From the NCBI GenBank assembly GCA_019135865.1, contig JAGVVD010000008.1, positions 62,001 through 126,000 on the forward strand: a DNA stretch of 64,000 bases, read 5' to 3'. Position 1 is the first letter of the stretch. The number at the start of each line of letters is the position of its first letter. Of the stretch, positions 21,238 to 49,292 are shown piece after piece. The stretch is from Elusimicrobiota bacterium. Lineage in GTDB: Bacteria; Elusimicrobiota; Elusimicrobia; Elusimicrobiales; UBA9959. The position numbers and the translations under genes are program-made. The notes under the pieces were generated by a model, which saw only the letters and a program-made list of their open reading frames with translations, had not been told where the DNA came from and ran no database searches.

Positions 21238-22416
21238 ATGAAGCCTTTTAAGCTCACCGACAACGTGGAATACATGTGCGTCAATCATTTCAACCGCAGG
21301 TTCTTCGACGCCCTCATCCCGCTGCCGCAGGGCACCAGTTACAATTCCTATCTCGTGCGCGGCGCGGAAAAGACCGCCGTCATAGACGCGGCCGACCCGG
21401 AGAAGATGGGCGTACTGCTGGACTATCTTAAAGAGGAAAAGAAAATAGACTATATCATAGCCCAGCACGCCGAGCAGGACCACAGCGGCGGCATAACCGC
21501 CCTGCTCCGGAAATACCCGGACGCCATGGTGGTGACCAACCCGAAATGCAAAGAACTGCTGATGACGCATCTGCATGTGCCGGCCGAAAAGTTCATAGAG
21601 GTGAAGGACGGGGAGGAGCTGGACCTGGGCGGCGGCCGGAAGCTCAAGTTCATCTATACGCCCTGGGTGCATTGGCCGGAGACCATGTGCACCTGGCTGG
21701 AGTCGGACGGCGTGCTGTTCACCTGCGATCTCTTCGGCTCGCACCTGGCGACCGCCAACCCGTTCTCCGACCCGGAGGACGTCTATGAGCCGATGAAGCG
21801 CTATTACGCCGAGATCATGATGCCCTTCCGCCAGCAGGTGAAGGCGGACCTGGAGAAGATAGCCGGCCTGCCGGCCGGCTTCATCTGCCCCAGCCACGGG
21901 CCGGTGCACAAGGGACAGATGCCCGGCAAGGTCAGGGAGTATTACACGGACTGGGCCGTTTCGGCTCCCAGGAACAAGGTCGTGCTGGCCTATATCTCCA
22001 TGCACGGCAGCACCCTGGTCCTGGTCAACAGGCTTTACAGCCGCCTGCAGGAACTGGGCGTGCACGTGGAGAAGCTCAACCTGGAGGATGCGGACACCGG
22101 GCGGCTCGCCATGTCGCTGGTCGACGCCGCCACCATAGTGGTGGGTACGCCGATGGTCCTGGCCGGCGCCCATCCCAAGGCGATATACGCGGCCTACCTC
22201 GTCAACGCTCTCAGGCCCAAGGCCAAGTGGATAGGCGTGCTGGGTTCTTTCGGCTGGGGGGGCAAACTGGTGGAGTCGCTGGCCGCGGCTCTCGGCCCGT
22301 TCAAGGCCGAGGTGCTGCCGCCGGTGCTGGTCAAAGGGCTGCCGCTGGAGGACGACCTGAAAAAGGTCGACGCCCTGGCGGAAGAAATAGCCAAAAAGCA
22401 CGCCTTGCCGGCCTGA
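21238..22416 (+). CDS. Flavodiiron protein (FprA/rubredoxin:oxygen oxidoreductase-type)
   Basis: A-type flavoprotein of 392 residues that reduces O2 to water and/or NO to N2O. The N-terminal metallo-beta-lactamase-like domain carries the diiron ligands: QHAEQDHSGG (HxExDH), WVHWPETM, FTCDLFGSH (bridging Asp) and PSHGPV. The C-terminal flavodoxin domain has the FMN loop YISMHGSTLVLV (S/T-rich P-loop), VVGTPMVLAGAHP and LGSFGWGGK. No rubredoxin or reductase is fused, so an electron donor must be encoded elsewhere. This suggests an anaerobe or microaerophile that detoxifies O2 or NO. Confidence 0.95.
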   Translation: MKPFKLTDNVEYMCVNHFNRRFFDALIPLPQGTSYNSYLVRGAEKTAVIDAADPEKMGVLLDYLKEEKKIDYIIAQHAEQDHSGGITALLRKYPDAMVVTNPKCKELLMTHLHVPAEKFIEVKDGEELDLGGGRKLKFIYTPWVHWPETMCTWLESDGVLFTCDLFGSHLATANPFSDPEDVYEPMKRYYAEIMMPFRQQVKADLEKIAGLPAGFICPSHGPVHKGQMPGKVREYYTDWAVSAPRNKVVLAYISMHGSTLVLVNRLYSRLQELGVHVEKLNLEDADTGRLAMSLVDAATIVVGTPMVLAGAHPKAIYAAYLVNALRPKAKWIGVLGSFGWGGKLVESLAAALGPFKAEVLPPVLVKGLPLEDDLKKVDALAEEIAKKHALPA

Positions 22417-22424
22417 CCGGGCCC

Positions 22425-22453
22425 TTGAAAAAGGCGCGGCTCTCTGCTAGACT
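22425..22453 (+). promoter_or_regulatory. Sigma-70-type promoter before the low-complexity gene cluster
   Basis: TTGAAA (22425-22430), a 17-base spacer and TAGACT (22448-22453) stand 67 bases before the ATG at 22520. The -35 matches the consensus in five of six positions. It starts right after the flavodiiron gene stop. Confidence 0.6.
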
Positions 22454-22519
22454 TTTGATGGCAGCTTTCCGCGCACCGGTCGGTTGTTGCGGGAGGCGGG
22501 TTTTGTTTGGGGATATTCT

Positions 22520-23674
22520 ATGGCTGACTCGGCCGACAGGGGCAAAAGATCCCTGATAGTGATGGTGCTGGCCTTCCTGATAACGGGCGGCGGCGTTTTC
22601 GTTTTCCTTATTTTCCAGAGCCTGGAAGATATGCAGGACGTCAAGTTCCGCAGTTTCGGCTCGGGCATGACCGGCCGCGTCACGCTGCCAATACTTAAAT
22701 ATTTTAATTTCGTAGATAAAGAGACTCCTGAAGGAGCGGCCAGGGCCGAGTTGGCCCTCAAGCTCGAAGAGGTGCTTAAAGCCGAGCATGACGATACGCC
22801 GGTCGCGGACGGCGCGGGCAAGGCCTCGGCCGCCGTTTCAAACCCTCCCCGCAGGGACTCTTTCGGGCAGCGACCTTCCGGCAGGATCAGGTCCTCCCTG
22901 TCCGGGGTCGGTGCTCTCGGCGGCTCGGGGGGCAGCAAGTCGTTCTCTTCTTTTTCCGGCGCCGGCGGATCCGGGGGCCTGAAGCTTTCCGGAAAAGCCG
23001 GCTCCGGCGGGCTTTCCTCCAAGTCCGGCAAGACCATAGACGCTCTGGCGTCAGCAGGCAGGCATCTCACGTCCGCTGCGAATACCGGTTCAGCTCGTAA
23101 CGCCAAGTCTAGGTGGGACCAGGCTTTCGGTCTGAAACATGCGGGGGAGGGAGGCACGGGACAGGTCTCCTCCTACAACAAGGCCGCTGTGGAACTGGAC
23201 GAGATAGAGACCGGCGAGGTTGGCAGCCTCAAGCTGGGAAACCCTACGACCTTGGACGTCCCCGAAGTGGGCAAGCCCAAGGCCGTGGAGACGCCGGAGA
23301 GCGTCGCGGACAAGGCCAAGGAGGCCATGAAGAAAAATATGGCCGACCAGATAGCGAAGTCCTTGCTGAGCGGCCTGGGGGGCGGGGGCGAGTCTAACAA
23401 GCCCTCGCAGAACCCCCAGCAGCCTAAGGAAATGCCCGACGATATGCATGGATGGATAGACAATCAGCTGGCATTGGGCGCGGGGGACTTGGAGGGATAC
23501 GCGGACACGGATTACGATTACAAACAGATCACCTGTTCCGTGAACTGCCCGCCCGGTCTTGACGGTAAGCCGGTCTGGCAGGTCTCTTTCAACGGCCAGG
23601 GGGATAATTCGGGGCTTCTTAACAACTGTCTTGTCTACCCTTCTGGCGGCAGTTATACCTCATCCTGTTTCTAG
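22520..23674 (+). CDS. Unknown membrane-anchored Gly/Ser-rich protein (cluster gene 1)
   Basis: No family recognised. The 384-residue protein has a short basic N-terminus and one transmembrane helix at residues 11-32. An acidic/helical stretch (65-92) follows, then a Gly/Ser-rich low-complexity region (105-170), WDQAFG (199-204), DEIETGE (227-233) and VPEV (247-250). A final soluble part has four Cys (339, 343, 370, 383), possibly disulfide-bonded outside the cytoplasm. The QAFG, EIETGE and VPEV motifs recur in the same order in the next genes. The ATG at 22520 is chosen because a GGGGATATT stretch precedes it and the next residues form the basic-plus-TM start shared by the cluster. Confidence 0.75.
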   Translation: MADSADRGKRSLIVMVLAFLITGGGVFVFLIFQSLEDMQDVKFRSFGSGMTGRVTLPILKYFNFVDKETPEGAARAELALKLEEVLKAEHDDTPVADGAGKASAAVSNPPRRDSFGQRPSGRIRSSLSGVGALGGSGGSKSFSSFSGAGGSGGLKLSGKAGSGGLSSKSGKTIDALASAGRHLTSAANTGSARNAKSRWDQAFGLKHAGEGGTGQVSSYNKAAVELDEIETGEVGSLKLGNPTTLDVPEVGKPKAVETPESVADKAKEAMKKNMADQIAKSLLSGLGGGGESNKPSQNPQQPKEMPDDMHGWIDNQLALGAGDLEGYADTDYDYKQITCSVNCPPGLDGKPVWQVSFNGQGDNSGLLNNCLVYPSGGSYTSSCF

Positions 23675-23681
23675 CCTCCCC

Positions 23682-23710
23682 TTGACAAGTCAACTTTTGC
23701 CTGCTATAAC
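23682..23710 (+). promoter_or_regulatory. Near-consensus sigma-70-type promoter inside the cluster
   Basis: A perfect -35 TTGACA (23682-23687), a 17-base spacer and TATAAC (23705-23710, five of six). It starts 8 bases after the stop of cluster gene 1 and would give a leader of about 85 bases to the ATG at 23803. This is the best promoter match in the window. Confidence 0.75.
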
Positions 23711-23802
23711 ATAGAGGAAATAGGACTTTGCCCTGAACATCGCGGAAGGTGTGTCAAGGGAAAGTTTATGTTGTTTTGATTGTCCGGGGAAAGCGGGGCC
23801 TT

Positions 23803-24780
23803 ATGATGAAAATAAATTCCGGAAAAAAATCCAAGAACGCCCAGTACGCCGTGGGGGGCGTAATAGCGGTGGTCGTGATATTCTTCTGGACGTCGCTGCC
23901 GCTCATGCAGAAATCCCCCTTCGATACTTCCGTCCCCACCGGCAATCCTTTCAAGTCGAGGTCCGTGGACCTTAACGCCCTGGAGATCCCCTCCGAGGCT
24001 TCCGCCCCCGGCTACGCTCTCAGCGGGGCCATGACGGATAATCCGGCCACCGCGGGCGACCTGGCGGAGTCTTCGCTCTTCAGTTCCGGTATGGGTGAGC
24101 TCTCCGACGGGGAGGCCGCCGCGTCCGCCTCGGCCGACGGCGCGGCTGTTTCCGCCTCCGCTTCCGCCGGTGTCTCGGTACCTTCCGCGGCTCCGGGGAA
24201 TTCCCCCAGGCCCAAGATGAGCGCCCCCGGTTCCCTTTCCGGCGGCAACGGTAATTCCATGACCGCCGGAGGCGTGCATAACAAGTTCTTCGGCGGGAGC
24301 AACGCCAAGGCCGACATCGCTCCTTCCAAACTGCCGGAAGTGAAGAAGTCCGCCCTTTCCGATAAGAAGGCCACCGGGCTGATGGCTTCCCTGGCCGCCG
24401 CGGAAAAGAAAAGCGCCGCTTCGGCCGGCATGAAAGTCGACGAATCCAGGGGCGGAGCGTCCGGCGCTTTCCACGGCGCGACGGCGGCTTCCAAGACGCA
24501 TCTCGACGAAGAACTTGAACATGATTCGGCTGTGGCCGGCCTGGAACTCGGCAAGGTCGATTCCGACCTCAAGAGGAACGATCCCGCCATAAACAACAAG
24601 AAGTTCAAGCCGCCGGAAGTGCCGGAACCCACGCTGGCCGAGAAGAACGACGAGATGTATAAACAAATGATAATGCAGATGCTCATTTCGCAGGTACTGG
24701 GGCCCATGTTCGGAGCGCTTATGCAGGGGGCCATGGGCATAGACTCGGGTTCGTCTGGCAATAAGACCATTGGCGGATAG
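23803..24780 (+). CDS. Unknown membrane-anchored Ala/Ser-rich protein (cluster gene 2)
   Basis: A 325-residue protein of no known family. Lys-rich N-terminus, transmembrane helix at 15-31, then an extended Ala/Ser/Gly region containing PRPKM (135-139) and LSGG (145-148). A Lys/Ala helical region (175-212) follows, then GAFHG (221-225), LKRNDP (256-261) and PPEVPEP (270-276). A final helix is rich in Met (YKQMIMQMLISQVLGPMFGA, 286-305). The block LKxNDP...PPxVPEP...YxxMxM aligns with cluster gene 3 almost position by position. The ATG at 23803 is followed by another ATG at 23806; GGGGAAAGCGGGG lies just upstream. Confidence 0.75.
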   Translation: MMKINSGKKSKNAQYAVGGVIAVVVIFFWTSLPLMQKSPFDTSVPTGNPFKSRSVDLNALEIPSEASAPGYALSGAMTDNPATAGDLAESSLFSSGMGELSDGEAAASASADGAAVSASASAGVSVPSAAPGNSPRPKMSAPGSLSGGNGNSMTAGGVHNKFFGGSNAKADIAPSKLPEVKKSALSDKKATGLMASLAAAEKKSAASAGMKVDESRGGASGAFHGATAASKTHLDEELEHDSAVAGLELGKVDSDLKRNDPAINNKKFKPPEVPEPTLAEKNDEMYKQMIMQMLISQVLGPMFGALMQGAMGIDSGSSGNKTIGG

Positions 24781-24822
24781 TGGCTCAGGGATACGGACAG
24801 TTACAGTTCCTTCGGAGGATTT

Positions 24823-26244
24823 ATGAACAACAAAGAAGAAAACAGGAAAGAAGGTCTGCTCGGAGTTGTGGCCCGCCTTTTCGGCGGCGGCTCCAGGGCT
24901 TCCGGAGCCGCCTCCTCGCTGGGTTCGGCCGCCGGTTCGGCGGCAGGGACCTCCGCCGGTCTCGGCGGACTTTTCGCCAGCAAGGCCGGCGTGCTCGGCA
25001 TGGTGCTCGGCGGCGCCACGATAGCCGCCGGGGTCGGGGTCGTCTACAACTTCATGGGCGCCTCCTCCAAGCCGGTCTATTCCCCTTCCCTCTTCCAGAA
25101 CGCCTACCAGGAAGAGCAGGCCGCTGCGGCCAGCATGGAGCGCCAGCGCGTGAACAGCCAGGCCGCCGCGGAACCGTCCACGCTGGACATGTTCAGGGAC
25201 CAGGCTAAGAAGGACGGGCTGGGATTCGGGGACGAAGAGGCTTCGGGGTCCTCCGGGTCGGGCGAAGAGGCGGGGGTATCGGAAGGAGCCAGCGCCTCGG
25301 CCGAAGTGGGAGCCCCGGATTACGGGGCGGGCGCCGGGCCTGCGGCCGGAGCCGGCAAGGGCAAACTGGCCGCTTCGCTGGGTTTCGGCCAGAAGAGCGC
25401 CGGCGGCAGCGGCACCTCCATACCAAAGATGCAGACCTCGGGCGGACTTTCCGGCGGCATCGGACAGAGTTTCGCCCCGGTCTACAGGCCGCCGGCCGGC
25501 CAGGCTTCGGGGATGAGGAAATCCATGTCCGCCCGTGTTTCCAATTCTCCCAAGTACACGGTGCCTAATTTCAATAAAAAAGGCGCTTTCGGCCAGGCCA
25601 AGTACGCGGGCAAGATGGGAGGCAAAGCCGCCTATTCCGCTTCCGACGCCGGGGCCAAGACCGCGGCTACGGAGGCTTTCGCGGGCGAGACCGCGGGGAG
25701 CGGCGACGTGGCCGGCGTGCCCGAGACCGGTGCGGGTCTGGGTGGGGCCGGGGTTTCCGCCGGGGATTCGCTCAAGGCCAACGACCCCAACCTCAACATG
25801 AACGAGAGCGAGCCTCCGCCCGTGCCGGAGCCGGAGAACGTCTCTCCCTGGGAGAAGTATACCGATATGGCGATGAAGGCCATGCTGGCCTCCATCGTCC
25901 TCATCCTTCTGACGAAGATACTGGGCAAGTGGCCCATGCTGTACTACGCGGCCGTCTGTACCGCCATAGCGGCCATGGGCGCGGCGGCCATGGTGATCTA
26001 CGCCGGTATCAAGCTGATGACCACTTTCGGCCAGAAATGGATGGGCGGTATGTATATAGTGGTCGGCATCATGCTGATGATACAGGCATGGGAGGCCTTG
26101 TGCGGTCTTGAGAAAGGCAAGGTCGGCGCGGACGGCAAACTGATGAAGGGTGCCGACGGCAAGGTCATAACTACCAAGCCCATGGGCAACATGAGCATCA
26201 CCGGCGGCAAGGGCATAGGTTCGCTGCTTGGATTCGGCGGCTAA
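24823..26244 (+). CDS. Unknown Gly/Ala/Ser-rich membrane protein with C-terminal helix bundle (cluster gene 3)
   Basis: A 473-residue protein without a recognised family. N-terminal basic/amphipathic segment and Gly/Ala-rich stretch, transmembrane helix at about 57-77, STLDMF (119-124), acidic Gly/Ser region, PKMQT...LSGG (201-212), KKGAF (252-256), EAFAG (284-288), LKANDP (317-322), PPPVPEP (331-337) and VSPW (340-343). Three more hydrophobic segments follow (353-366, 372-396, 406-425), then a soluble tail with a short GADGK repeat (435-439, 443-447). SD GGAGG precedes the ATG by 7 bases. It appears homologous in layout to cluster gene 4. Confidence 0.78.
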   Translation: MNNKEENRKEGLLGVVARLFGGGSRASGAASSLGSAAGSAAGTSAGLGGLFASKAGVLGMVLGGATIAAGVGVVYNFMGASSKPVYSPSLFQNAYQEEQAAAASMERQRVNSQAAAEPSTLDMFRDQAKKDGLGFGDEEASGSSGSGEEAGVSEGASASAEVGAPDYGAGAGPAAGAGKGKLAASLGFGQKSAGGSGTSIPKMQTSGGLSGGIGQSFAPVYRPPAGQASGMRKSMSARVSNSPKYTVPNFNKKGAFGQAKYAGKMGGKAAYSASDAGAKTAATEAFAGETAGSGDVAGVPETGAGLGGAGVSAGDSLKANDPNLNMNESEPPPVPEPENVSPWEKYTDMAMKAMLASIVLILLTKILGKWPMLYYAAVCTAIAAMGAAAMVIYAGIKLMTTFGQKWMGGMYIVVGIMLMIQAWEALCGLEKGKVGADGKLMKGADGKVITTKPMGNMSITGGKGIGSLLGFGG

Positions 26245-26274
26245 CGCTAGGGAAGGACCTTTCAGGGAGGCTTT

Positions 26275-27741
26275 ATGGAAGACAAGGATCTGCCGGAGAT
26301 CGGCTTTAAAGAGAAGAAGGAGCGCAAAGGCTTCCTTCCCTGGCTCAGGGGCCGCATGGGCTTCGGTTCCCGCGGCCCGATGGGCTCGGTAGGCGCAGGC
26401 CCGGCGGCCGGCGGAGCGGGGCGCGCACTCGGCGCCGCCCGGCTCGGAGCCGGCGCCAAGTTCGGCGCGGCCGGAGGCATACTGGCGGCGAAGGGCACCA
26501 TAGCTACCGTGGCCGTGATAGCGGCCGCGATAGGCACCACGCTGTACATGAACAACCGGCAGGCGCTTTCACCGGTCTCCTCCGCCTTCAATTCGGACCG
26601 GGGAGCGCAGTCCGCCGAATATGTCCCCGCCATATTGCGGCGGCAGGCTTCGCCCGGTTCCTCGCTCGACATGTTCGCCGACAGGAACAAGGGCGTCATA
26701 GACTTCGACGGCGAGGCCGCGAAGGCGGCCAAGGCCGAAGCCGAAGCCGCGGCTGCTTCCGCCGACGCGGCGGCCGAAGCGCCGGAGGGCGGCGAGCCGG
26801 CGGCCGAGGGGTCAGAGATGGGCGATCCCGGGGCTTTGCTGGGCAAGCTGCAGGGCGCCAGCGCCACCGGGCTTTCCACCGGCCTTAGCGGCGGGAGTTC
26901 CGGCAAGACCTTCGGCTTCCCGAACAAGGTCGGCCAGGGCTCTTTCGGTCCTAAGGTGGGCTTCAGCAACATGGGCGCCGGCAAGTTCGCGCCGATGCAG
27001 AGCCCCAAGAAAGGCAAACTTACCGCGATGAACGCCTCCAAGCAGGCCATACGCGGCGGCAAGGGCGCGGCGGCGGCCAAGAAATCGGGAGCCGGCGCCT
27101 GGAACCAGGCCAAGGGCGTGCGCGATGTGCAGAAGACTTACGGCGCCACTAATGTCGATACGATGCGTTCCACACAGGACCAGGCCTGGGAAGGGACCAC
27201 CGGCGAGGGCGGCGTGGACGGCGGCGCCGGTATAGGCGCGGGCGACGGAGGCGCGGGCATAGTCACTTCCCCTTCGCTGGATAATACGACCAGCGGCGGC
27301 GGGTCCGGCGACTATGACACGCCCGGGGAATATACCCCCGTCGATCCCGGCAGTTTCGACGTGAGCCCCTGGGCCAGCGACGCCTCGCAGGCCATGATGT
27401 TCCTGCTGCTCTCGGCGGTGCTCTCCATAGCCGGAGCCTACCTTATCAGCATAGCGCAGGGACCTCTGGCGTTCCTGAAAATAATCGGCTATATACTGTG
27501 CATCGCGGCCCTGTTGCTTGCCGTGATGGCGATGCTGAAGGGCTTCGCGATCATGTTCAGCCACGGGCAGATGCTGCTCGGGACGATATATGTCATAGGC
27601 GGCGGCGTCGGAATATTGGGAGCTATAACCGCCATGCAGGGCAATCCCGGCGAGGCTATGAGCCAGAACGTCCTGTGGATGGCCGGCATAGCCGGCATAC
27701 TGGGCCTGCTGGGCTCGATGATGGGGTCGCCGGGAGCCTGA
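26275..27741 (+). CDS. Unknown Gly/Ala/Ser-rich membrane protein with C-terminal helix bundle (cluster gene 4)
   Basis: A 488-residue protein sharing the plan of cluster gene 3. Charged start, Gly/Ala-rich basic stretch, transmembrane helix at 70-92, SSLDMF (129-134), an Ala/Glu helix (147-170), LSGG (204-207), a Lys-rich segment (243-270), DQAWEG (302-307), a Gly/Asp-rich spacer and DVSPW (362-366). Four hydrophobic segments follow (373-394, 397-421, 432-453, 465-484). The helix pair ending in FSHGQMLLGTIYVIGGG parallels FGQKWMGGMYIVVG of gene 3. SD GGGAGG precedes the ATG. No enzyme motif is visible. Confidence 0.78.
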   Translation: MEDKDLPEIGFKEKKERKGFLPWLRGRMGFGSRGPMGSVGAGPAAGGAGRALGAARLGAGAKFGAAGGILAAKGTIATVAVIAAAIGTTLYMNNRQALSPVSSAFNSDRGAQSAEYVPAILRRQASPGSSLDMFADRNKGVIDFDGEAAKAAKAEAEAAAASADAAAEAPEGGEPAAEGSEMGDPGALLGKLQGASATGLSTGLSGGSSGKTFGFPNKVGQGSFGPKVGFSNMGAGKFAPMQSPKKGKLTAMNASKQAIRGGKGAAAAKKSGAGAWNQAKGVRDVQKTYGATNVDTMRSTQDQAWEGTTGEGGVDGGAGIGAGDGGAGIVTSPSLDNTTSGGGSGDYDTPGEYTPVDPGSFDVSPWASDASQAMMFLLLSAVLSIAGAYLISIAQGPLAFLKIIGYILCIAALLLAVMAMLKGFAIMFSHGQMLLGTIYVIGGGVGILGAITAMQGNPGEAMSQNVLWMAGIAGILGLLGSMMGSPGA

Positions 27742-27750
27742 TGAGCGGCG

Positions 27751-27783
27751 GGACGGGGGCGCGCGGCCGCGCGCCCTCCGTCC
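27751..27783. other. Strong intercistronic hairpin between cluster genes 4 and 5
   Basis: A 20-base perfect palindrome (27757-27776) of G/C only, extended by a further 6-base pairing (27751-27756 with 27778-27783) across one bulged T. It begins 10 bases after the stop of gene 4. No T-run follows, so it is more likely an mRNA stability or attenuation element than a complete terminator. Confidence 0.7.
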
Positions 27784-27808
27784 GGAAGCTGGTCTTAGGG
27801 GATAATAT

Positions 27809-29401
27809 ATGGGCAGCAAATTCATACAGCGCCACAAGCGCAAGTCCCTGATCGCCGCCCTGCTCCTTCTTTTCAGGAGCAGGGTACGGTACGTGATATT
27901 GTTCCTCGTGGTGGCCGGCGTTTCAGCTCCCTTCGTGGTGAGCCAGGACATGCTTTACCGCCTGGTCATGCTGCCGCCGGTCAATTATGTCCTGAAAGCC
28001 GCCGGGCTGCAGGGGTTCATCGCCACCATAAATCCCGCCTATTCCAACGAGATATTCCAGGCGGCGATGGAGCGCGCGATGTTCGAGAGCGATCAGGATT
28101 CGGTCTGGAACAGTTTCCTCCGCGGCATGTCCCCGATGGGCGGAACAGGCGGGCCGTCCTCCCTGGCGATGCTCCGGGCCGAATACCTGGCCCGCGCCGC
28201 CGAAGAGGAACGGCAGAAGGCCCGTTCGGCCAAGGGGCGCGCCGACCAGGTCAAGGGCGCCGTCAGCGACGAGGAGAAAGCGCGCGGAGGCGGGGCCGAC
28301 GCGGTGGATTTCGAGAGTTACCTCGCCTCCTACTCCGGGGGCGACGAGGGCGGCGGGTTCGGTTATATGGACCAGGGCGGCGGCTCCGACGGCGCCGCTT
28401 ACCCGTTCATGAACCGCACGCTGCTGGGGCCGGGCGGCGGTCCCGCCGGTCGCGATACCGGGGTCTATACCGGGGCGATGAGCAAGGCCGCGAGCGGCGT
28501 GCCCGTGCCGGGCAATCCCAAGGCCGTGAAGGGCAAGAACATGGGCCGCGTTTCCGGCTTCTCCTGGCGCAACGCCGGCTACGACAGGGGCGCCGCGAAG
28601 AAGGCCGGTTCCCGCATCAACAGGCAGGGCGCCATCTTCCGCCTTTCCGAGACCTTCGCGATGACGGGCGCGGCTTACAGGAACCCCTCGGCCTCTTCGG
28701 AGTACCAGGCTTCCTACACCGGGTCCACTTACGACGGCAATTCGGTGGACAACGAGGAGATACAGACCGGCGAAGCTCCGCCGCCGGTGCCCGATAACGC
28801 CTGGGTGGCCAATACCCTCGGCGGGGCTTCTGAACTCAGCGACATGGCCGAACACTGCTCCCAGGTCTCCGGCGAGCAGAGCGCGATAATATCCGAGAAC
28901 ACGAAGAAGATTGACGATATCTCCAAAACCCTGGGCAAGCCGCCCAAATGCTGCAAGCACGGCGCGGTGGACCGCTGGAACGACAAGATCATGCGTATAA
29001 GGGCGCTCTGCCTGGACAACAACACCAGGCAGGGTATAATCTCGCAGGCCTGTCAGAACCCGTCCAACACGGACCAGGTCAATTGCAACCAGTACAACAA
29101 GATGAAGATCAAGAAGTGCAGCAAACTTAAGTGCTTCCTCTCCATCATACTGGCCATAATACTGATGGTCATCGGCTTCGCGTTCGGCGGGATCCTCGGC
29201 GCGGCGCTTATGATCGCGGGCGCCCTGATGATGCTTTCCCAGCTCATGCCCAGCCTGGCCGGCCTGCTTGCCGGCCTGCTAGGCGGTGTAGGCCTCGCCT
29301 CGTTCTTCGTGGGAGAGGAGGAGTCCCAGGAGGCCATGAAGACGGCCCTTGAGACCAATGCCGCCTCCGACGACGAGACGGGGGAGAAAGAGGAAGAGTG
29401 A
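27809..29401 (+). CDS. Unknown membrane protein with Cys-rich domain and C-terminal helices (cluster gene 5)
   Basis: A 530-residue protein, no family recognised. Very basic start (KFIQRHKRK), hydrophobic helix at about 27-44, a helical section (75-150) ending in a charged coil, Gly-rich spacer, basic region (238-278), YQASYTG (299-305), EEIQTGE (316-322) and PPPVP (324-328). A Cys-rich part with eight Cys (350-442) comes next, including KCCKHG (380-385) and KCSKLKC (436-442). Hydrophobic segments at 443-475 and 482-500 follow, and an acidic tail (EEESQEAM...GEKEEE). The EIQTGE and PPPVP motifs match gene 1 and genes 2-3. GGGGATAAT lies before the ATG. Confidence 0.75.
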   Translation: MGSKFIQRHKRKSLIAALLLLFRSRVRYVILFLVVAGVSAPFVVSQDMLYRLVMLPPVNYVLKAAGLQGFIATINPAYSNEIFQAAMERAMFESDQDSVWNSFLRGMSPMGGTGGPSSLAMLRAEYLARAAEEERQKARSAKGRADQVKGAVSDEEKARGGGADAVDFESYLASYSGGDEGGGFGYMDQGGGSDGAAYPFMNRTLLGPGGGPAGRDTGVYTGAMSKAASGVPVPGNPKAVKGKNMGRVSGFSWRNAGYDRGAAKKAGSRINRQGAIFRLSETFAMTGAAYRNPSASSEYQASYTGSTYDGNSVDNEEIQTGEAPPPVPDNAWVANTLGGASELSDMAEHCSQVSGEQSAIISENTKKIDDISKTLGKPPKCCKHGAVDRWNDKIMRIRALCLDNNTRQGIISQACQNPSNTDQVNCNQYNKMKIKKCSKLKCFLSIILAIILMVIGFAFGGILGAALMIAGALMMLSQLMPSLAGLLAGLLGGVGLASFFVGEEESQEAMKTALETNAASDDETGEKEEE

Positions 29402-29734
29402 TTTCTGTCGGCGGCGGATATCGCGGATAGTAATGAACGACGGTTCGTTTCAGCCCGGCCCTTGCGGAGGCCGGCGACGGGGGCGCTGCGGAACCCTCCT
29501 TTAAGGAGGGAGCGTCCCGGGCGCCGCCCCGTAGTAAAGCAGGCGGTCGGGCTTTCGGTTTGCCCCGGTCCCGCGCCAAGGGCCATAAGGCCCAGCCCGG
29601 GATGGGCCGGATGACACTTGGAGGCCGGAGGATTATTAGGTAGAGTATGATAAGCAGTGTCGGCTGGCCTCGGGCCATGCGTGTCCTGCGGGATGTTTTT
29701 ATATGTTGCAAGGCGCCGGTTTTCTGGAGGATAT
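29402..29734. other. 333-base non-coding gap with predicted RNA structure before cluster gene 6
   Basis: No supportable ORF on either strand. It holds a two-part hairpin (outer stem 29481-29487/29511-29517 with one G-U, inner stem CCCTCCTT/AAGGAGGG at 29494-29510). Two adjacent smaller hairpins follow, at 29580-29593 (GGGCC-ATAA-GGCCC) and 29595-29607. GACACT (near 29613) can pair with AGTGTC (near 29655). SD CTGGAGG lies just before the ATG of the next gene. I recognise no known riboswitch core. Confidence 0.5.
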
Positions 29735-32700
29735 ATGAACTTCCATAATGATAAAGAGGAACGCAAACCCGTTCCGCCCGTGCTGGGCAGGCAGGCCCCC
29801 GGATTCCGCAAATCCAGCGTTTTCGGCAAGACGCCGGCCTTCTCCCGCGCCGCCGGCGGCATTATGGAGAGGCTGAAAGGGCTCTCGCGCCGCGACCTCG
29901 GCCTTGTCGCGCTCGGGATCAGCGCCCTCGTGATGGCGCCTGTGGCGGAGTTCATGATGTCCCGCCCGCCGATGGACAACTCGCTCACCGCCGGCTTCGG
30001 CACGCGCGACGCTTCCGCGGCCGCTTCGCTCTACGAACCCGGCATACACGGGCTCAGCCAGGGGTCGCCCGACGGCAGCGGCGAGGTCATAGTGCCGCTG
30101 AGCGCCCGCGACCCTTTGTCGCTGATACTGGGCGCCTCCAAGCCCGCGCCCCCGTCCATGCCCTCTTCACTGCCGCCCTCCGGCGGCTTCCGCGACGCAG
30201 TAAGGGACTCCGGCCGGGAGGCTTTCGCCGCGGCCGTCAAGTCCGCCGGCGCTCCCACGGTGATCCCCAAGATGCAGACGGCCCTGCGCGGCATGAGCTC
30301 TTTCTTCGGCGGCGGCGAAAGCTCCCGCACCTCCGGCGCTCTTTCCGGCGGGCAGATAAGCGCCAGCGCCAAGAAGGCTTCCGGCAAGGCGGCTTCGCGT
30401 TCCATGGTCGGTCCGATAGCCGCGGCCGGCTATAAGGGCGTGGCGCTGACCCCCAACAGTTCGTCCAAAGGCGCTTTCGAGAAACTGCGCTCCGCGGCCG
30501 ACAAGGCGGCGGGCAATTTCACCGACAATAGCGCCGCCCGCGGCCTGGACAAGGCCGCCGCCGACTCCGTCAATATCGGTTCGGGCGACGGCGGCATAGG
30601 CAGCGGCATGGAAGGGGACAAGACCAAGGGGCATTCCAACAGCAGCATCCGCGACCAGAAATCTAATTCCGGGGAGTCGCTGCAGGCCCAGCTCAACAGG
30701 AAGCGCGCGGAAAGACAGCTCGAATGGGACCTTTACAAGCAGTTCGGGATCAAGCAGGACCTGACCAAGGCCATGGTCTCCGCCTTCGGAGAGGTGCTGG
30801 GCGATTTCGTCAAGAGCACCACCAAGGGCCTGCTGGGCATGAACAGCAGCGGTCCGTCCCCCAAGGCCTGCTACAAATGCAACGAATACACCGATGCCGG
30901 AGTTTGCACCAGGTGGACCATGATCCGGCCGGCCACCACGGACGAGAAGGCCATCGACGCCTGGATAGCCAAAGGCATCTGCGACGATATCAGGACTCCG
31001 TCCAGCGGTAGCTCGGGCACGGCCGCCGCTCCGCCGGCCACGGGGAACGCCTCCGATCTTTCGGGTCCCGTTCCCCCGGCGGATATATCGTCCAATTCCT
31101 CCGGCATATACGCCGGCTCGGGCCAGGGGAACAATAAGGGGCTCGACGGTATGCTGACCGCCCTCGCCAAAAGCGTCAAAGAAGGCAAGAGAGAGGAATC
31201 CTCCAGGAAATTCGTCGAATGGACCCGCGGTATCGCCGAACGGTCCGTCTTCGCGGCCGCCGAGTACAGCAAAGCCGGCGCTACCCTGCTGGGGATGAAA
31301 CCCACCCTGGACGGCAAGATAAGCGAATACGGCAAGGCTATCGACGCCGCCAGCCAGAAAATGATCAAGGCGGAGGCCGATCTTAAGGTCTTCTCCGGCA
31401 AAGTCAACGCGCTCGATATCGGCAAGCGGAAAGACTTGGGCGGCGGAGCGCTGGCCGACGCGGACGAGACGACGGCCGCCATCTCCGAGGTCAAGGCCGA
31501 GATAGAGACCGCGGACAGGAAAGTGAAGAACATCAAACTCCGCGTGCTCAAACATAAGCAGATCAAGGACTTCTACGCGGCCGAGGCCGCAAAGGTCGAA
31601 GCTTCGGCTAATATCATCACCAACGGGGTCCGTGATATACAGTCCGAGGTCTCCCCGCTTTTCTCCCGGCTGGACCAGCTGAAGAACAAAGGCGAGATCG
31701 ACCGCGACGAACAGGCGGAAGTGGTAGATGCCTTCAAGACGCAGACCAAGGTCGATCCCATGTATCGGCCGGTAGAGACCGCGGTCCGTTCCGCCTCGCT
31801 CGACGGCGGCGTGACGACGGCTGCGGCCGGCTTCCGGCTGTACGCCGCCGCCTCCATCCCCTCCGACCTGCGGGACGCGCCGGACGCCGGCGGCTCCCAA
31901 TACCCGGCCGCAGAGGATTCACCGGTCGGTATGCTGATGTCGTACCGCGGGGCGGACCTGGCCAAGTTGTGGTCGGAAAAAGTGGACGACTCGGCGGCCA
32001 AGACCACGGAGCGCGGGGCCTGGGACGCGGTCAGCCCGTATCTCAAATACGGTACCATCATAGAGTCCCAGTCCGACGGACTCTCCGCCGGACCGGAACT
32101 TCCCGCCGACGTCATCTCCGTGGAACTGCGCGCCAGGAACATCCTCTGGGACATCAACAATGTCAGCGGCCAGGTCACGATAGAGGCGGCCAACGCCGAG
32201 CCTAAGATAGCCGATTGGACCAAGAAACTGCAGGGCTTCGGCCTTCTGCAGGAAACCCCCGCCTCCGGGCCCTCGGATATAAATTCTCCCGCCCGGCCGA
32301 ACCCGGTGGACGGTGACAAGCCGGACGGACCGGCGGGGCCCGGTCAGCGTCCGGTTTCCGGCGGCAGCGGCGTCTCGAACGCCGCGGTGACCAAGGCCGA
32401 CGGCATACTCTCGGGCTACGAACAGGCCACGATCGGCGCCAGGAGCAAGTTCAACGTCCTCAACAGCGCGGCCAGCCAGCGGAACTGCACCAGCACCTCG
32501 TGCAAGGAGAACCTGAGCAAGGCCAAGACGTCCGTCGGTAAGATGGAGTCCCTTGTCCAGGAGGTCAGGGACCTGCGCCAGGGGGCCGGACGCGACGGTC
32601 TGAAGGCGGAGGATATCTCCAGGATAGAGGGACAGCTGGTCGAGAAAGAGAAGCAGCTCTTGGATGCCAGGAGCACCTTCGATACTTCGGCCGGTATAGT

Positions 32701-33235
32701 GGAGCGGCTGGAAGGCATACCGAGTTCCGGTTCTTCCGGCGCGCAGCCGCCCATCGTCATAAACAACAATGTCAACGCCGACGCCAGCGCCAACGCCAAT
32801 GCCGCCGCCAAAGCCGAAGCCGACGCGGCCGTGGGCTCCGATAATCCTTCTGATTCCGGCAAAAAGCCGCTGCCGGCCCCGATGCAGACCCTGTACTTCA
32901 ACATGCCCGACAACCGCAGCATGCAGCTGGACCGCGCTTCCCACGGCAATCAGGGCGGAACGGAGAAGGCCGTCTACGAAGGCTGGCATCGCGAGGAAGG
33001 CCGGAACTTCGGCGTACTCGCCAAGGACGCCAAAACCTACAGGGTCACCTGCACCCGCGGCGCCGACGGCTCTTTCACGGTGAGCAATACCGAAAGCCGG
33101 GTGGTAGCTTTCCCCGCGGGCGAGGACCGGGGCATTCTGGCCACTGTCGGCCTTAAGCGTCTCCTGAGAATGGAGAACATAAGCATAGGGAGTTTCAAGA
33201 CCACCGGCGAATTCAACGGACAGCCCTGCCATTGA
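29735..33235 (+). CDS. Large unknown membrane-anchored, partly coiled-coil protein (cluster gene 6)
   Basis: The 1166-residue protein is the largest of the cluster and of no known family. It has a basic N-terminus, one transmembrane helix at 54-74, Gly/Ser region, PKMQT (178-182) and LSGG (203-206), KGAF (245-248), then a Cys module CYKC...VCTRW (379-393; Cys379, 382, 391, 416). Long charged helical stretches (about 500-690) are probably coiled coil. Further soluble segments and an Asn/Ala-rich linker (INNNVNADASANANAAA) precede a C-terminal domain of about 150 residues. The start ATG at 29735 has SD CTGGAGG. It ends 16 bases before an intrinsic terminator, so it closes the unit. Confidence 0.78.
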   Translation: MNFHNDKEERKPVPPVLGRQAPGFRKSSVFGKTPAFSRAAGGIMERLKGLSRRDLGLVALGISALVMAPVAEFMMSRPPMDNSLTAGFGTRDASAAASLYEPGIHGLSQGSPDGSGEVIVPLSARDPLSLILGASKPAPPSMPSSLPPSGGFRDAVRDSGREAFAAAVKSAGAPTVIPKMQTALRGMSSFFGGGESSRTSGALSGGQISASAKKASGKAASRSMVGPIAAAGYKGVALTPNSSSKGAFEKLRSAADKAAGNFTDNSAARGLDKAAADSVNIGSGDGGIGSGMEGDKTKGHSNSSIRDQKSNSGESLQAQLNRKRAERQLEWDLYKQFGIKQDLTKAMVSAFGEVLGDFVKSTTKGLLGMNSSGPSPKACYKCNEYTDAGVCTRWTMIRPATTDEKAIDAWIAKGICDDIRTPSSGSSGTAAAPPATGNASDLSGPVPPADISSNSSGIYAGSGQGNNKGLDGMLTALAKSVKEGKREESSRKFVEWTRGIAERSVFAAAEYSKAGATLLGMKPTLDGKISEYGKAIDAASQKMIKAEADLKVFSGKVNALDIGKRKDLGGGALADADETTAAISEVKAEIETADRKVKNIKLRVLKHKQIKDFYAAEAAKVEASANIITNGVRDIQSEVSPLFSRLDQLKNKGEIDRDEQAEVVDAFKTQTKVDPMYRPVETAVRSASLDGGVTTAAAGFRLYAAASIPSDLRDAPDAGGSQYPAAEDSPVGMLMSYRGADLAKLWSEKVDDSAAKTTERGAWDAVSPYLKYGTIIESQSDGLSAGPELPADVISVELRARNILWDINNVSGQVTIEAANAEPKIADWTKKLQGFGLLQETPASGPSDINSPARPNPVDGDKPDGPAGPGQRPVSGGSGVSNAAVTKADGILSGYEQATIGARSKFNVLNSAASQRNCTSTSCKENLSKAKTSVGKMESLVQEVRDLRQGAGRDGLKAEDISRIEGQLVEKEKQLLDARSTFDTSAGIVERLEGIPSSGSSGAQPPIVINNNVNADASANANAAAKAEADAAVGSDNPSDSGKKPLPAPMQTLYFNMPDNRSMQLDRASHGNQGGTEKAVYEGWHREEGRNFGVLAKDAKTYRVTCTRGADGSFTVSNTESRVVAFPAGEDRGILATVGLKRLLRMENISIGSFKTTGEFNGQPCH

Positions 33236-33251
33236 GAGGCTTCCGTCAGTA

Positions 33252-33286
33252 AACGCCGCCGGTCTACAGCCGGCGGCGTTTTTTTT
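33252..33286 (+). terminator. Intrinsic terminator of the low-complexity cluster
   Basis: Stem CGCCGCCGG/CCGGCGGCG with loop TCTACAG, followed by eight T residues. It lies 16 bases after the stop of cluster gene 6 and separates it from the deoxyhypusine-synthase-like gene. Confidence 0.95.
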
Positions 33287-33290
33287 GCCT

Positions 33291-33320
33291 TTGTGGCCCG
33301 GCCCCGCAAATTCATATAAT
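33291..33320 (+). promoter_or_regulatory. Promoter of the deoxyhypusine-synthase-like gene
   Basis: TTGTGG (33291-33296), an 18-base spacer and a perfect TATAAT (33315-33320), right after the terminator and 53 bases before the ATG. Confidence 0.65.
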
Positions 33321-33373
33321 ATGGGTACGGGCCGCGAAGCCCACCCAAAGCGATAGCAGGAGAACCCCTTAAA

Positions 33374-34420
33374 ATGCCAAAGCTCAAGAAGTCCGACTTC
33401 CTCAAAGAGACCGTTCAGCACATCGATATCAAGAAACACAATGTCGTCCCGCTGGTGGACGCCATGCGCGAGATGGCCTTCTCGGCCCGCGACCTGGCGC
33501 GCGCCGCCGACATCTACCAGATGATGCTCGAGGACAAGAACTCGTCCATCATACTCTGCCTCGCCGGCTCGCTGTTCTCCGCCGGCCTCAAGAAGGTCGT
33601 TTACGACATGGTGAAGAACAACATGGTGGACGCCATCGTCTCCACCGGCGCCATCATCGTGGACCAGGACTTCTTCGAGGGCCTGGGCTTCAAACATTAC
33701 AAGGGCACGCCGTACGGCATCGACGACAACGACCTGCGCGACCTGCACATCGACCGCATCTACGATACCTTCATCGACGAGGACGAACTGCGCGTCTGCG
33801 ACGACACCACCCGCAAGATCGCGGACTCCCTGGAGCCGCGCCCCTATTCCTCGCGCGAGTTCATCGAGGAGATGGGCCGCTACCTTTCAAAGCACGGCAA
33901 GAACAAGGAGAGCGTGGTGCTGGCCGCCTACGAGAAGCGCGTGCCGATCTTCGTGCCCGCCTTCTCCGACTGTTCCGCCGGCTTCGGCATGGTGGAGCAT
34001 CAGTGGAAGAATCCCGGCCGCCACATGTCGATGGATTCGGCCAAGGATTTCCTGGAACTGACCAGGATAAAGATCGAGGCGGGCGAGACCGGCATCTACA
34101 TGATCGGCGGCGGCGTCCCCAAGAACTTCACGCAGGACACGGTGGTAGCGGCCGACATACTGGGCGAAGAGGCCCCTATGCACAAGTACGCCGTGCAGGT
34201 GACCGTGGCCGATTCGCGCGACGGCGCGCTGTCGGGCTCCACGCTCAAGGAGGCCTCCTCCTGGGGCAAGGTCGAGACCACGTTCGAACAGATGGTTTAC
34301 GCCGAGGCGACCATAGCCATGCCGATTATCAGCGGCTACGGCTACCACAAGGGCGCCTGGAAGAACCGCAAGGCCCGCTGCTTCTCGGACTTCCTCAACA
34401 AGCAGCTGGTGAAAGCTTAA
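33374..34420 (+). CDS. Deoxyhypusine synthase family protein (possibly homospermidine synthase-like)
   Basis: NAD-dependent enzyme of the deoxyhypusine synthase family, 348 residues. Family segments include CLAGSLFSAGLKKVV, DAIVSTGAIIVDQDFFEGLG, FSDCSAGFGM, TGIYMIGGGVPKNFTQDT and EASSWGKVE with the catalytic Lys (Lys299). In archaea and eukaryotes this enzyme modifies eIF5A; bacteria lack eIF5A, and several bacterial members make homospermidine from spermidine or putrescine. That role is a family-based inference here. Not tightly linked to polyamine genes; the next gene is an outer-membrane protein. Confidence 0.92.
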   Translation: MPKLKKSDFLKETVQHIDIKKHNVVPLVDAMREMAFSARDLARAADIYQMMLEDKNSSIILCLAGSLFSAGLKKVVYDMVKNNMVDAIVSTGAIIVDQDFFEGLGFKHYKGTPYGIDDNDLRDLHIDRIYDTFIDEDELRVCDDTTRKIADSLEPRPYSSREFIEEMGRYLSKHGKNKESVVLAAYEKRVPIFVPAFSDCSAGFGMVEHQWKNPGRHMSMDSAKDFLELTRIKIEAGETGIYMIGGGVPKNFTQDTVVAADILGEEAPMHKYAVQVTVADSRDGALSGSTLKEASSWGKVETTFEQMVYAEATIAMPIISGYGYHKGAWKNRKARCFSDFLNKQLVKA

Positions 34421-46352: not shown

Positions 46353-48122
46353 ATGGCTGACAAGGGTTTCCCGATAAACGTCACGAAGCGTCTCGGCGAG
46401 ATGCTCGTCAGTTCGTCCCTGATAACGGCCGAGCAGCTCAACGAGGTGCTCGATTTCCAGCGCGCCAGCGGCGGCCGCCTGGGCCAGATCCTCATACACA
46501 AGAAGTACATCACCGAGCGCAAACTGCTGGAGTTCCTCAGCAAGCAGTTCGGCATAGAGTTCGTGGAACTGGGGGAGAAGGAGGTCCCCGAGGACCTCAT
46601 CAAGATAATCCCCGAGAACATCGCCCGCCGTCACACGCTCATCGCGGTGGAGAAGAAGGACAATGTCCTCAAGGTCGCGATGGAGGACCCTCTCAACATC
46701 GTGGTCCTGGACGACCTCAAGATGATGACGGGTTTCGAGATAAAGGCCGTGTTCGGCGCCGAGTCGGAGATAGCCTCCGCGATCGACAAGTATTACGGCA
46801 CCAAGACCTCCAAGGAGGCGCTCGACGAGATACTCAAGAAGACCGACGGCGGCCTGGCCGAGGTCTCGCTGGTGCCGGAGGACGCCAAGAAGGGCGGGGG
46901 GGATGACATCGCCTCGCTCGAGGACAAGGGCGAGGCCGCGCCCATAGTCCAGATGGTCAACCTGATCATCGCCTCGGCCATAAAGGCCCACGCGTCCGAC
47001 ATCCACATCGAGCCCACTTACAAGGAAACCCGGGTGCGCTTCCGCATCGACGGCGTTCTGCACGCCCAGCCGGCCCCCCCGAAGAAATTCCACAACGCCA
47101 TCATCAGCCGCCTCAAGATCATGGCCTCGCTCGACATCTCCGAACGCCGCCTGCCGCAGGACGGCCGCACCAAGCTCAAGATAGAGGACAAGGAGATCGA
47201 CCTGCGCGTCTCCATACTGCCCTGCGGCCCCGGCGAGAAGGTCGTCATGCGCATACTGGACTCCTCCGGCCTGAAGCTCAGGGTCGAGGACCTGGGCATG
47301 GAGCCGGAGAACCAGGCGATATTCCTCAAATGCATGCGCGCGCCGCACGGCGTGAACCTCATAACCGGCCCGACGGGCTCGGGCAAGTCCACCACGCTCT
47401 ATTCCGCCCTGGCCTCCCTCAACGGTCCCGACGTCAACATCGTGACCATCGAGGACCCTATCGAGTACCAGCTGGAGGGCATCAACCAGGTGGGCGTCAA
47501 CGCCGACGTGGGCCTGACCTTCGCTTCGGGCCTGCGCTCCTTCCTGCGCCAGGACCCGGATATCATCATGGTGGGCGAGATACGCGATTATGAGACGATG
47601 TCCATAGCCATCAACGCCGCCATGACCGGCCACCTGGTCTTCTCGACGCTGCACACCAACGACGCCCCCGGCGCCATAACCCGCATAGGGATGATGGGAG
47701 TGGAGCCGTTCCTCACTTCTTCCACGCTGCTGATGGTGGTGGCCCAGCGCCTGGTGCGCACGATCTGCAAGAACTGCAGGGAGAGCTACGAGGTGAAGCC
47801 GGAACTGCTCGCCGGCCTCAACGCCAGCAGGGCCATCATAGAGAACAACACCAAGAACGGGAAGATCTATCTCCACCGTGGCCGCGGCTGCGAGAAATGC
47901 GCCAATACCGGCTACAAGGGCCGCCTGGGCATACATGAGATACTCGAGGTCAACGACGCCGTACGCGGCCTCATCATCGAGAAGGCCCACGTTTCCGTGA
48001 TAAAGGAAGCCGCGCGCAAGAACGGCATGATAACCCTGCGCGAATCCGCCGTGCGCAAGCTCTTTACCGGGCACACCACGGTGGAGGAAGTGATAAGGGT
48101 CACCGCCTCGGACGTGGATTGA
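46353..48122 (+). CDS. pilB: Type IV pilus assembly ATPase PilB (GspE family)
   Basis: Extension motor ATPase, 589 residues. The N-terminus has two tandem MshEN-like motifs (residues 13-36 and 42-65, each starting RLGxxL), a known c-di-GMP-binding fold in MshE/PilB relatives. The NTPase core has ASDIHIEPT, Walker A GPTGSGKST (about 338-346), the Asp box EDPIEYQ, Walker B IIMVGEIRDYETM and the His box FSTLHTND. A zinc tetracysteine module CKNC...CEKC (about 471-516) completes PilB. It leads the pilB-pilT-pilC group. Confidence 0.96.
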   Translation: MADKGFPINVTKRLGEMLVSSSLITAEQLNEVLDFQRASGGRLGQILIHKKYITERKLLEFLSKQFGIEFVELGEKEVPEDLIKIIPENIARRHTLIAVEKKDNVLKVAMEDPLNIVVLDDLKMMTGFEIKAVFGAESEIASAIDKYYGTKTSKEALDEILKKTDGGLAEVSLVPEDAKKGGGDDIASLEDKGEAAPIVQMVNLIIASAIKAHASDIHIEPTYKETRVRFRIDGVLHAQPAPPKKFHNAIISRLKIMASLDISERRLPQDGRTKLKIEDKEIDLRVSILPCGPGEKVVMRILDSSGLKLRVEDLGMEPENQAIFLKCMRAPHGVNLITGPTGSGKSTTLYSALASLNGPDVNIVTIEDPIEYQLEGINQVGVNADVGLTFASGLRSFLRQDPDIIMVGEIRDYETMSIAINAAMTGHLVFSTLHTNDAPGAITRIGMMGVEPFLTSSTLLMVVAQRLVRTICKNCRESYEVKPELLAGLNASRAIIENNTKNGKIYLHRGRGCEKCANTGYKGRLGIHEILEVNDAVRGLIIEKAHVSVIKEAARKNGMITLRESAVRKLFTGHTTVEEVIRVTASDVD

Positions 48123-48136
48123 CCCCCTATTTTAAG

Positions 48137-48142
48137 TATAAT
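48137..48142 (+). promoter_or_regulatory. -10 element candidate before pilT
   Basis: A perfect TATAAT in TTTTAAGTATAATTAACGG stands 53 bases before the pilT ATG; no -35 is seen at normal spacing. Confidence 0.4.
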
Positions 48143-48194
48143 TAACGGAGCGGGCCGTCCCGCTCCCCAAACCGCGCCGTAACTGGAGAAACCT

Positions 48195-49271: not shown

Positions 49272-49292
49272 AGCTGAGGGGGAAGGCCCAGG

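What the first reader, a model, noticed from the sequence alone, without database searches (positions are those of the whole stretch)
22425..33286. Six-gene cluster of unrecognised, low-complexity membrane-anchored proteins that look like one tandemly expanded family
Genes at 22520, 23803, 24823, 26275, 27809 and 29735 are all in one direction, closed by a strong terminator, and none matches a family I know. They share a plan: basic start, one early transmembrane helix, Gly/Ala/Ser-rich extended region, then short motifs in constant order. PKM(Q)...LSGG occurs in genes 2, 3 and 6 (LSGG also in 4); an aromatic xAFxG motif is DQAFG, GAFHG, EAFAG, QAWEG, ASYTG in genes 1-5; PPxVPEP or a shorter form is in genes 1, 2, 3 and 5; VSPW in genes 3 and 4; EIETGE/EIQTGE in 1 and 5; [ST]LDMF in 3 and 4. 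Several end in helix bundles or Cys-rich modules. This is about 10 kb of DNA given to one structure, probably in the envelope. A secretion, adhesion or surface-fibre system is the inference; no ATPase or enzyme is inside the cluster.
Basis: partly seen in the sequence, partly recalled or inferred. Interest (0 to 1): 0.85.

Follow-up and report, generated by a model that had tools for sequence, protein, structure and literature searches.

The report
Detached accessory genes of Tad pilus
Six neighbouring genes of unknown type form one family of membrane-anchored proteins that belongs to the machinery for a thin adhesive pilus (the Tad or Flp pilus) in the bacterial phylum Elusimicrobiota; they look like envelope parts that known versions of this machine lack.

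Summary
In detail: six co-directional genes (22520-33235), no known family, one early TM helix, Gly/Ala/Ser-rich stretch, shared motifs, strong terminator. Profile comparison with reversed and shuffled controls shows that they are one expanded family. Gene order is conserved across the window's family; homologues occur in several other families of the same class. In gut Elusimicrobiota and two sister families the same genes follow directly after TadG-like and TadE-like genes of a Tad (type IVc) pilus locus, often with an FtsH-like protease gene. In the window's own genome the Tad locus is intact on another contig and ends in a paralogue of gene 1. The largest protein, g6, occurs in 153 of 166 genomes with the TadG-like protein and in 7 of 129 without it. 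So this is the detached distal part of a Tad pilus locus. Best mechanism (inferred): an inner-membrane-anchored, periplasm-spanning scaffold around the pilus path, in a Tad variant whose secretin lacks the usual periplasmic N-domain; g6 adds a fast-diverging C-terminal domain, perhaps exposed. Scaffold versus displayed subunit is not settled. Not described in the papers searched; kinship outside the phylum was barely tested.

The parts
22520..23674 (+). g1, 384 aa: early TM helix (aa 13-31), Gly/Ala/Ser-rich part, Cys-containing variable C-terminus; paralogue of g0 on contig C54
   Evidence: hhalign g0-g1 E 2.7e-14
23803..24780 (+). g2, 325 aa: early TM helix (aa 17-35), KxNDP and PPxVPEP motifs, hydrophobic C-terminal helix
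24823..26244 (+). g3, 473 aa: early TM helix, conserved low-complexity part, C-terminal three-helix membrane bundle
   Evidence: found in 52 of 101 relatives
25846..26115 (+). C-terminal three-helix bundle of g3 (aa 342-431), the only confidently modelled part of g3
   Evidence: pLDDT mostly 74-90
26275..27741 (+). g4, 488 aa: full-length homologue of g3, C-terminal bundle of about four TM-like segments
   Evidence: hhalign g3-g4 E 5e-42
27809..29401 (+). g5, 530 aa: early TM helix, Cys-containing region, three C-terminal TM-like segments
29402..29734 (+). 333-bp gap before g6 with an element conserved in the genus (GGATGACACTTGGAG at 29609-29623, then TTATTAGGTAGAGTATG): promoter-like
   Evidence: consensus resemblance only
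29735..33235 (+). g6, 1166 aa: the core member
29735..30769 (+). g6 conserved anchor, aa 1-345: 76% identical within the genus, 53-59% between genera
30770..33232 (+). g6 variable, largely helical C part, aa 346-1166: 28% identical within the genus (23% to a second congener), 17-19% between genera
33251..33281 (+). intrinsic terminator, 13-pair stem followed by a T run

Best explanation
The six genes are the detached distal part of a Tad (tight adherence, Flp, type IVc) pilus locus and make an accessory subcomplex of that pilus machine (supported by gene context, homology and co-occurrence). Each protein is held in the inner membrane by its first helix; its long Gly/Ala/Ser-rich part, which carries motifs conserved between genera, reaches into the periplasm; g3-g5 return to the membrane with a C-terminal helix bundle, while g1 and g6 (and g0 on contig C54) carry Cys-containing C-terminal parts (predicted from sequence). 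I think they form a scaffold or cage around the pilus path, linking the inner-membrane motor and platform to the outer-membrane secretin (inferred). A reason to need one: the secretin of this group is about 241 aa, with no room for the periplasmic N-domain that secretins usually have. g6, with a conserved anchor and a fast-diverging C part, is the core member, retained alone where the rest was not found, and probably meets variable partners (inferred).
For: Profile homology of the six. Order conserved in about 40 loci. In families f2, f7 and f8 the genes follow TadG-like, TadE-like and often an FtsH-like gene on the same strand; 26 genomes counted. Slot-by-slot homology of the gut family's genes to g0, g2, g3/g4, g5, g6. 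The window's genome holds a Tad locus on C54 (secretin, TadZ-TadA fusion, TadB, TadC, CpaB, Flp-like pilins, TadE) that ends in g0, a paralogue of g1. g6 and the TadG-like protein co-occur: 153 both, 7 and 13 alone, 122 neither. Short secretin in four genomes compared against P. aeruginosa RcpA with its N-domain at residues 28-112 (PMC10499894). No class III signal peptide or TadE domain in g1-g6.
Against: In the window's family the cluster is not next to the Tad locus. G067 and its close relatives have Tad and g6 but g2-g5 were not found, so most members are dispensable to Tad there. CpaB, the usual alignment protein, is present, so a further scaffold is not strictly needed. CpaB/RcpC occurs in 238 of 295 genomes of the phylum, many without detectable g6. 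Co-occurrence was not corrected for shared ancestry. No interaction or localisation was tested.
Confidence: 0.55

Rival explanations
1. They belong to the Tad system but are exported or displayed parts (pilus-associated subunits or tip adhesins), not scaffold. g6 would be the adhesin, handed over from its membrane anchor to the pilus.
For: g6 joins a conserved anchor to a large C part that diverges fast even within the genus (76% against 28% identity), as exposed domains often do; the genes follow TadG-like and TadE-like genes, and minor pilins and a tip protein are part of known Tad machines (PMC13170226).
Against: No class III signal peptide, TadE or vWA domain in g1-g6; g3-g5 have several membrane helices, unsuited to a filament subunit; four or more members per genome is a lot for tip proteins.
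Confidence: 0.27
2. A surface fibre or secretion system of its own that merely sits near Tad genes in some lineages.
For: Detached from the Tad locus in the whole window's family and in G071; g6 has a promoter-like element of its own.
Against: Tight co-occurrence of g6 with the TadG-like protein after separation; g0 at the end of the Tad locus in the same genome; no ATPase, outer-membrane channel or peptidase inside the cluster.
Confidence: 0.09
3. Accessory proteins of the type IVa pilus / type II-like machinery whose ATPases and platform protein lie in the same window (46353-50486).
For: T2SSE and T2SSF genes 13 kb downstream; in G067 g6 lies about 6 kb from a run of type II/IV pilin-like genes (read from sequence).
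Against: In f2, f7 and f8 the neighbours are the Tad genes, not these; in the window's family the shared downstream neighbours are deoxyhypusine synthase, a 293-aa protein and dnaX.
Confidence: 0.04
4. Unrelated low-complexity membrane proteins that look alike by composition only.
For: All six are 32-43% Gly+Ala+Ser; several direct pairs (g1-g5, g4-g6, g5-g6) are no better than controls.
Against: Reversed and locally shuffled profiles keep composition yet score well below the linked pairs; alignments run colinear over long stretches; slot-by-slot matches between families.
Confidence: 0.03

Closest known systems
Tad / Flp (type IVc) pilus locus, e.g. Caulobacter cpa and Pseudomonas aeruginosa rcp-tad
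   Same: The window's genome has Flp-like pilins, TadE, CpaB/RcpC, secretin, TadZ, TadA, TadB and TadC in one locus; in sister families the g genes continue that locus
   Different: Six or more extra g-family proteins; TadZ and TadA fused in one ORF; secretin of about 241 aa without N-domain; FtsH-like protease gene; TadG-like protein matches no Pfam family
CpaB/RcpC and CpaI, alignment and bridge proteins of known Tad machines
   Same: Would do the same job if the scaffold idea is right: inner-membrane anchor (CpaB) and link to the secretin (CpaI), as modelled in PMC13170226
   Different: No sequence match to RcpC (PF16976) in g1-g6; CpaB is present separately; g proteins are low-complexity and several end in membrane bundles
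Tad minor pilins and tip protein (TadE, TadF, TadG; CpaJ, CpaK, CpaL)
   Same: Neighbouring genes; g6 combines a conserved membrane anchor with a large variable C part
   Different: No class III signal peptide, TadE domain or vWA domain found in g1-g6

Membership tests
Tad/Flp pilus system (in the window's genome) | TadA-type ATPase | tested here: met
   745-aa ORF on C54: T2SSE E 2.6e-64, TIGR03819 332 bits (below its 373-bit cut-off), fused to a MinD/CbiA-like TadZ part
Tad/Flp pilus system (in the window's genome) | TadB and TadC platform proteins | tested here: met
   two T2SSF proteins, E 2.6e-19 and 3.4e-16
Tad/Flp pilus system (in the window's genome) | CpaB/RcpC and secretin | tested here: met
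   TIGR03177 99 bits over cut-off 71; Secretin PF00263 E 1.5e-41
Tad/Flp pilus system (in the window's genome) | Flp pilin with class III signal peptide, TadE | tested here: met
   PF04021 E 2.4e-6 and 5.7e-4; TadE PF07811 E 2.9e-8
Tad/Flp pilus system (in the window's genome) | Prepilin peptidase | tested here: inconclusive
   One Peptidase_A24 gene over cut-off (C31) and one weak hit (C42), neither in the Tad locus; which of them serves Tad is unknown
Membership of g1-g6 in the Tad locus | Gene linkage to Tad genes | tested here: met
   26 genomes of other families; not linked in the window's own family, where g0 at the Tad locus is a paralogue of g1
Tad pilins / pseudopilins | Class III signal peptide or TadE domain in g1-g6 | tested here: not met
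   no Pfam hit of that kind at E up to 1
Tad alignment complex (CpaB/RcpC, CpaI) | RcpC domain in g1-g6 | tested here: not met
   no RcpC (PF16976) hit at E up to 1
Tad alignment complex (CpaB/RcpC, CpaI) | Physical contact with CpaB, the platform or the secretin | not testable with these tools
   Needs pull-down, crosslinking or cryo-ET

The most novel reading that the evidence does not exclude
A class of bacteria rebuilt the periplasmic half of the Tad pilus machine: the secretin lost its N-domain and a tandemly expanded family of low-complexity, inner-membrane-anchored proteins, looked after by an FtsH-like protease in the same locus, forms a new kind of trans-envelope conduit.
Probability: 0.3. 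Interest if true: 0.75.

Novelty: new variant of a known kind. Interest (0 to 1): 0.62.

Why it matters
About 10.7 kb of unannotated envelope genes, conserved across a large part of a poorly studied phylum, get a concrete system to belong to. Tad systems had been counted in Elusimicrobia (PMC6668835), but no paper found here describes these proteins, the FtsH-like partner, the short secretin or the TadZ-TadA fusion. A genome of the size of cultured Elusimicrobium minutum has the Tad locus and g6 while g2-g5 were not found, so the role of g6 could be tested in a laboratory strain, and Tad machines with and without g2-g5 can be compared.

Tried and rejected
Pfam and NCBIfam on the six proteins and on members of the g3/g4, g5 and g6 alignments: nothing usable. 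PDB sequence search with g3/g4 and g6 profiles: none for g3/g4, only generic helical and coiled-coil hits for g6. Fold search: the g3 bundle (aa 342-431) matches many unrelated helical bundles, and g6's helical parts match unrelated helical proteins, best Foldseek E-value 0.1, so no kinship is claimed. Rfam on 22000-34000: none. An early g1 alignment (A5) held a metallo-beta-lactamase (flavodiiron-type) neighbour by mistake; g1 was rebuilt without it and rescored. Genes of 397-454 aa between g4 and g5 in some relatives looked like extra members but read as radical-SAM/B12-type insertions. Other phyla could not be scanned with profiles: the one genome-contig scan used short peptide patterns and hit only Elusimicrobia.

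Full report
Observation. The six ORFs, their direction, the early hydrophobic helix, the Gly/Ala/Ser-rich composition, the listed motifs and the terminator at 33251-33281 are all in the sequence. No Pfam or NCBIfam model matches convincingly. The frames are under purifying selection against the nearest relative (NG86 dN/dS g1 0.16, g2 0.17, g3 0.14, g4 0.29, g5 0.31, g6 aa 1-345 0.24, all g6 0.49).

One family. From up to 39 sequences per gene (own gene caller) I built profiles and compared them with hhalign. g3 and g4 are near full-length homologues (E 5e-42); g2-g3 (6e-10), g1-g2 (1e-6), g4-g5 (4e-5) and g1-g3 (5e-5) are linked in colinear order; g1-g6 is weaker (1e-3, 39 bits, after removing two wrong rows from g1). 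Controls that keep composition (reversed profiles, columns shuffled within 30-residue blocks) gave at most about 17-31 bits, 68 for g3-g4. Not all pairs are linked directly (g5-g6, g4-g6 and g1-g5 are not), so the claim is a chain, weakest at g6.

Order. In about 40 fetched loci of the window's family, many cut by contig ends, the order g1-g6 on one strand is kept, with occasional duplication of g3 (G054, G008, G038) or a radical-SAM-type insertion between g4 and g5. A g3/g4 profile finds 79 of 295 genomes of the phylum, in several other families of the same class.

The link to Tad. In families f7 and f8 the g2...g6 genes stand directly behind a TadG-like gene, a TadE-like gene (Pfam TadE E 0.0016 in one, below its cut-off) and an FtsH-like gene with AAA and M41 domains. 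A profile of the TadG-like protein then found a copy in the window's own genome, on contig C54, and the TadE-like one beside it. Around them lies a Tad locus, C54:86080-107835: Flp-like pilins, TadE, CpaB, secretin, a TadZ-TadA fusion, TadB, TadC, sensor and response-regulator genes (read from sequence), TadG-like, TadE-like, then a 430-aa protein g0. 'TadG-like' is named for its position and N-terminus; it matches no Pfam family. g0 is a paralogue of g1 (E 2.7e-14, 111 bits against at most 32 in controls). Other members of the family have the same arrangement, usually with the FtsH-like gene between TadE-like and g0; it was not seen in the Tad loci of the window's genus.

Gut relatives. In family f2 (which includes G067, whose 1,643,562-bp single contig fits my memory of Elusimicrobium minutum; identity not proven) TadG-TadE are in many genomes followed by genes that match g0, g2, g3/g4, g5 and g6 slot by slot (E 1.5e-14, 5e-7, 2e-8/2e-7, 8e-7, 1.5e-10; controls 17-32 bits). 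In all, 26 genomes show g genes on the same strand within 15 kb of TadG/TadE. Some loci were fetched because of the g genes and some because of TadG, so 26 is a count of cases, not a frequency. In G071 the cluster is largely intact but detached; in G067, G062, G087, G224 and G269 g6 stands without its usual neighbours, away from the Tad locus, and a g3-type profile found nothing elsewhere except a weak hit in G062.

Co-occurrence. Over the same 295 genomes the TadG-like protein is in 166 and g6 (either of two profiles) in 160: 153 both, 7 only g6, 13 only TadG-like, 122 neither (one isolated hit, G149, in a 7393-aa frame was set aside). Several mismatches are incomplete drafts or distant families where the profiles are weak. 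The Fisher p value (7e-58) ignores shared ancestry. CpaB/RcpC itself is in 238 of 295, including other classes without detectable g6, so the g family is an addition to Tad in one part of the phylum, not a universal Tad part.

Mechanism. Supported by data: family, order, Tad context, co-occurrence. Predicted: one N-terminal anchor each; C-terminal membrane bundles in g3-g5 (AlphaFold confident only for g3 342-431); Cys-containing C parts in g1, g5 and g6. Inferred: periplasmic scaffold. The argument is that low-complexity stretches with motifs conserved between genera are likely packing surfaces, that the secretin here is about 241 aa, a signal peptide followed closely by secretin core (four genomes compared), and that P. 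aeruginosa RcpA has a separate N-domain at residues 28-112 that may form a periplasmic ring (PMC10499894). In Caulobacter, CpaB and CpaI bridge this space (PMC13170226). Against it, CpaB is present here as well. g6 stands out: anchor 1-345 is 76% identical within the genus and 53-59% between genera, the rest 28% and 17-19%; it is the member retained where others were not found. This fits a core anchor with a variable partner-binding or exposed domain and keeps the displayed-subunit rival alive.

Literature. Full-text searches found Tad systems counted in Elusimicrobia (PMC6668835) and nothing on these genes. Subscription journals are largely missing from the library, so absence there is weak evidence.

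Verdict. The precise role is open.

Noticed in passing
L170:4949-7186 (G000 contig C54:102949-105186): TadZ-like and TadA ATPase parts are fused in one 745-aa ORF; ORFs of similar length and start (739-774 aa) lie at this place in the other Tad loci read.
   Followed up: partly
L170:7226-7951 (G000 contig C54:105226-105951): Secretin of only 241 aa, a signal peptide followed closely by the secretin core, without room for an N-domain; 240-248 aa in three other genomes.
   Followed up: partly
L124:12263-13972, L113:13240-14931, L151:10958-12589: FtsH-like AAA+ M41 protease gene inside the Tad locus, very conserved (60-77% identity to the first of nine aligned); not seen in the Tad loci of the window's genus.
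   Followed up: partly
window 29609-29650: Element GGATGACACTTGGAG...TTATTAGGTAGAGTATG before g6, conserved within the genus and promoter-like; g6 may be transcribed separately.
   Followed up: partly
window 46353-50486: Three genes of type IVa pilus or type II-like kind (MshEN+T2SSE, T2SSE, T2SSF), separate from the Tad system.
   Followed up: partly
window 33374-34420: Deoxyhypusine-synthase family gene (PF01916, E 6e-95), a mainly archaeal and eukaryotic enzyme family, next to the cluster in many relatives.
   Followed up: no
L111:9605-12718, L112:9215-12392, L116:9852-11444: In family f8 genomes one or two g3/g4-type genes stand at further loci away from the Tad locus.
   Followed up: no
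L042:11597-12790, L045:11671-13029, L050:11305-12669: A radical-SAM/B12-binding-type gene inserted between g4 and g5 in some relatives (read from sequence, not scanned against a library).
   Followed up: no
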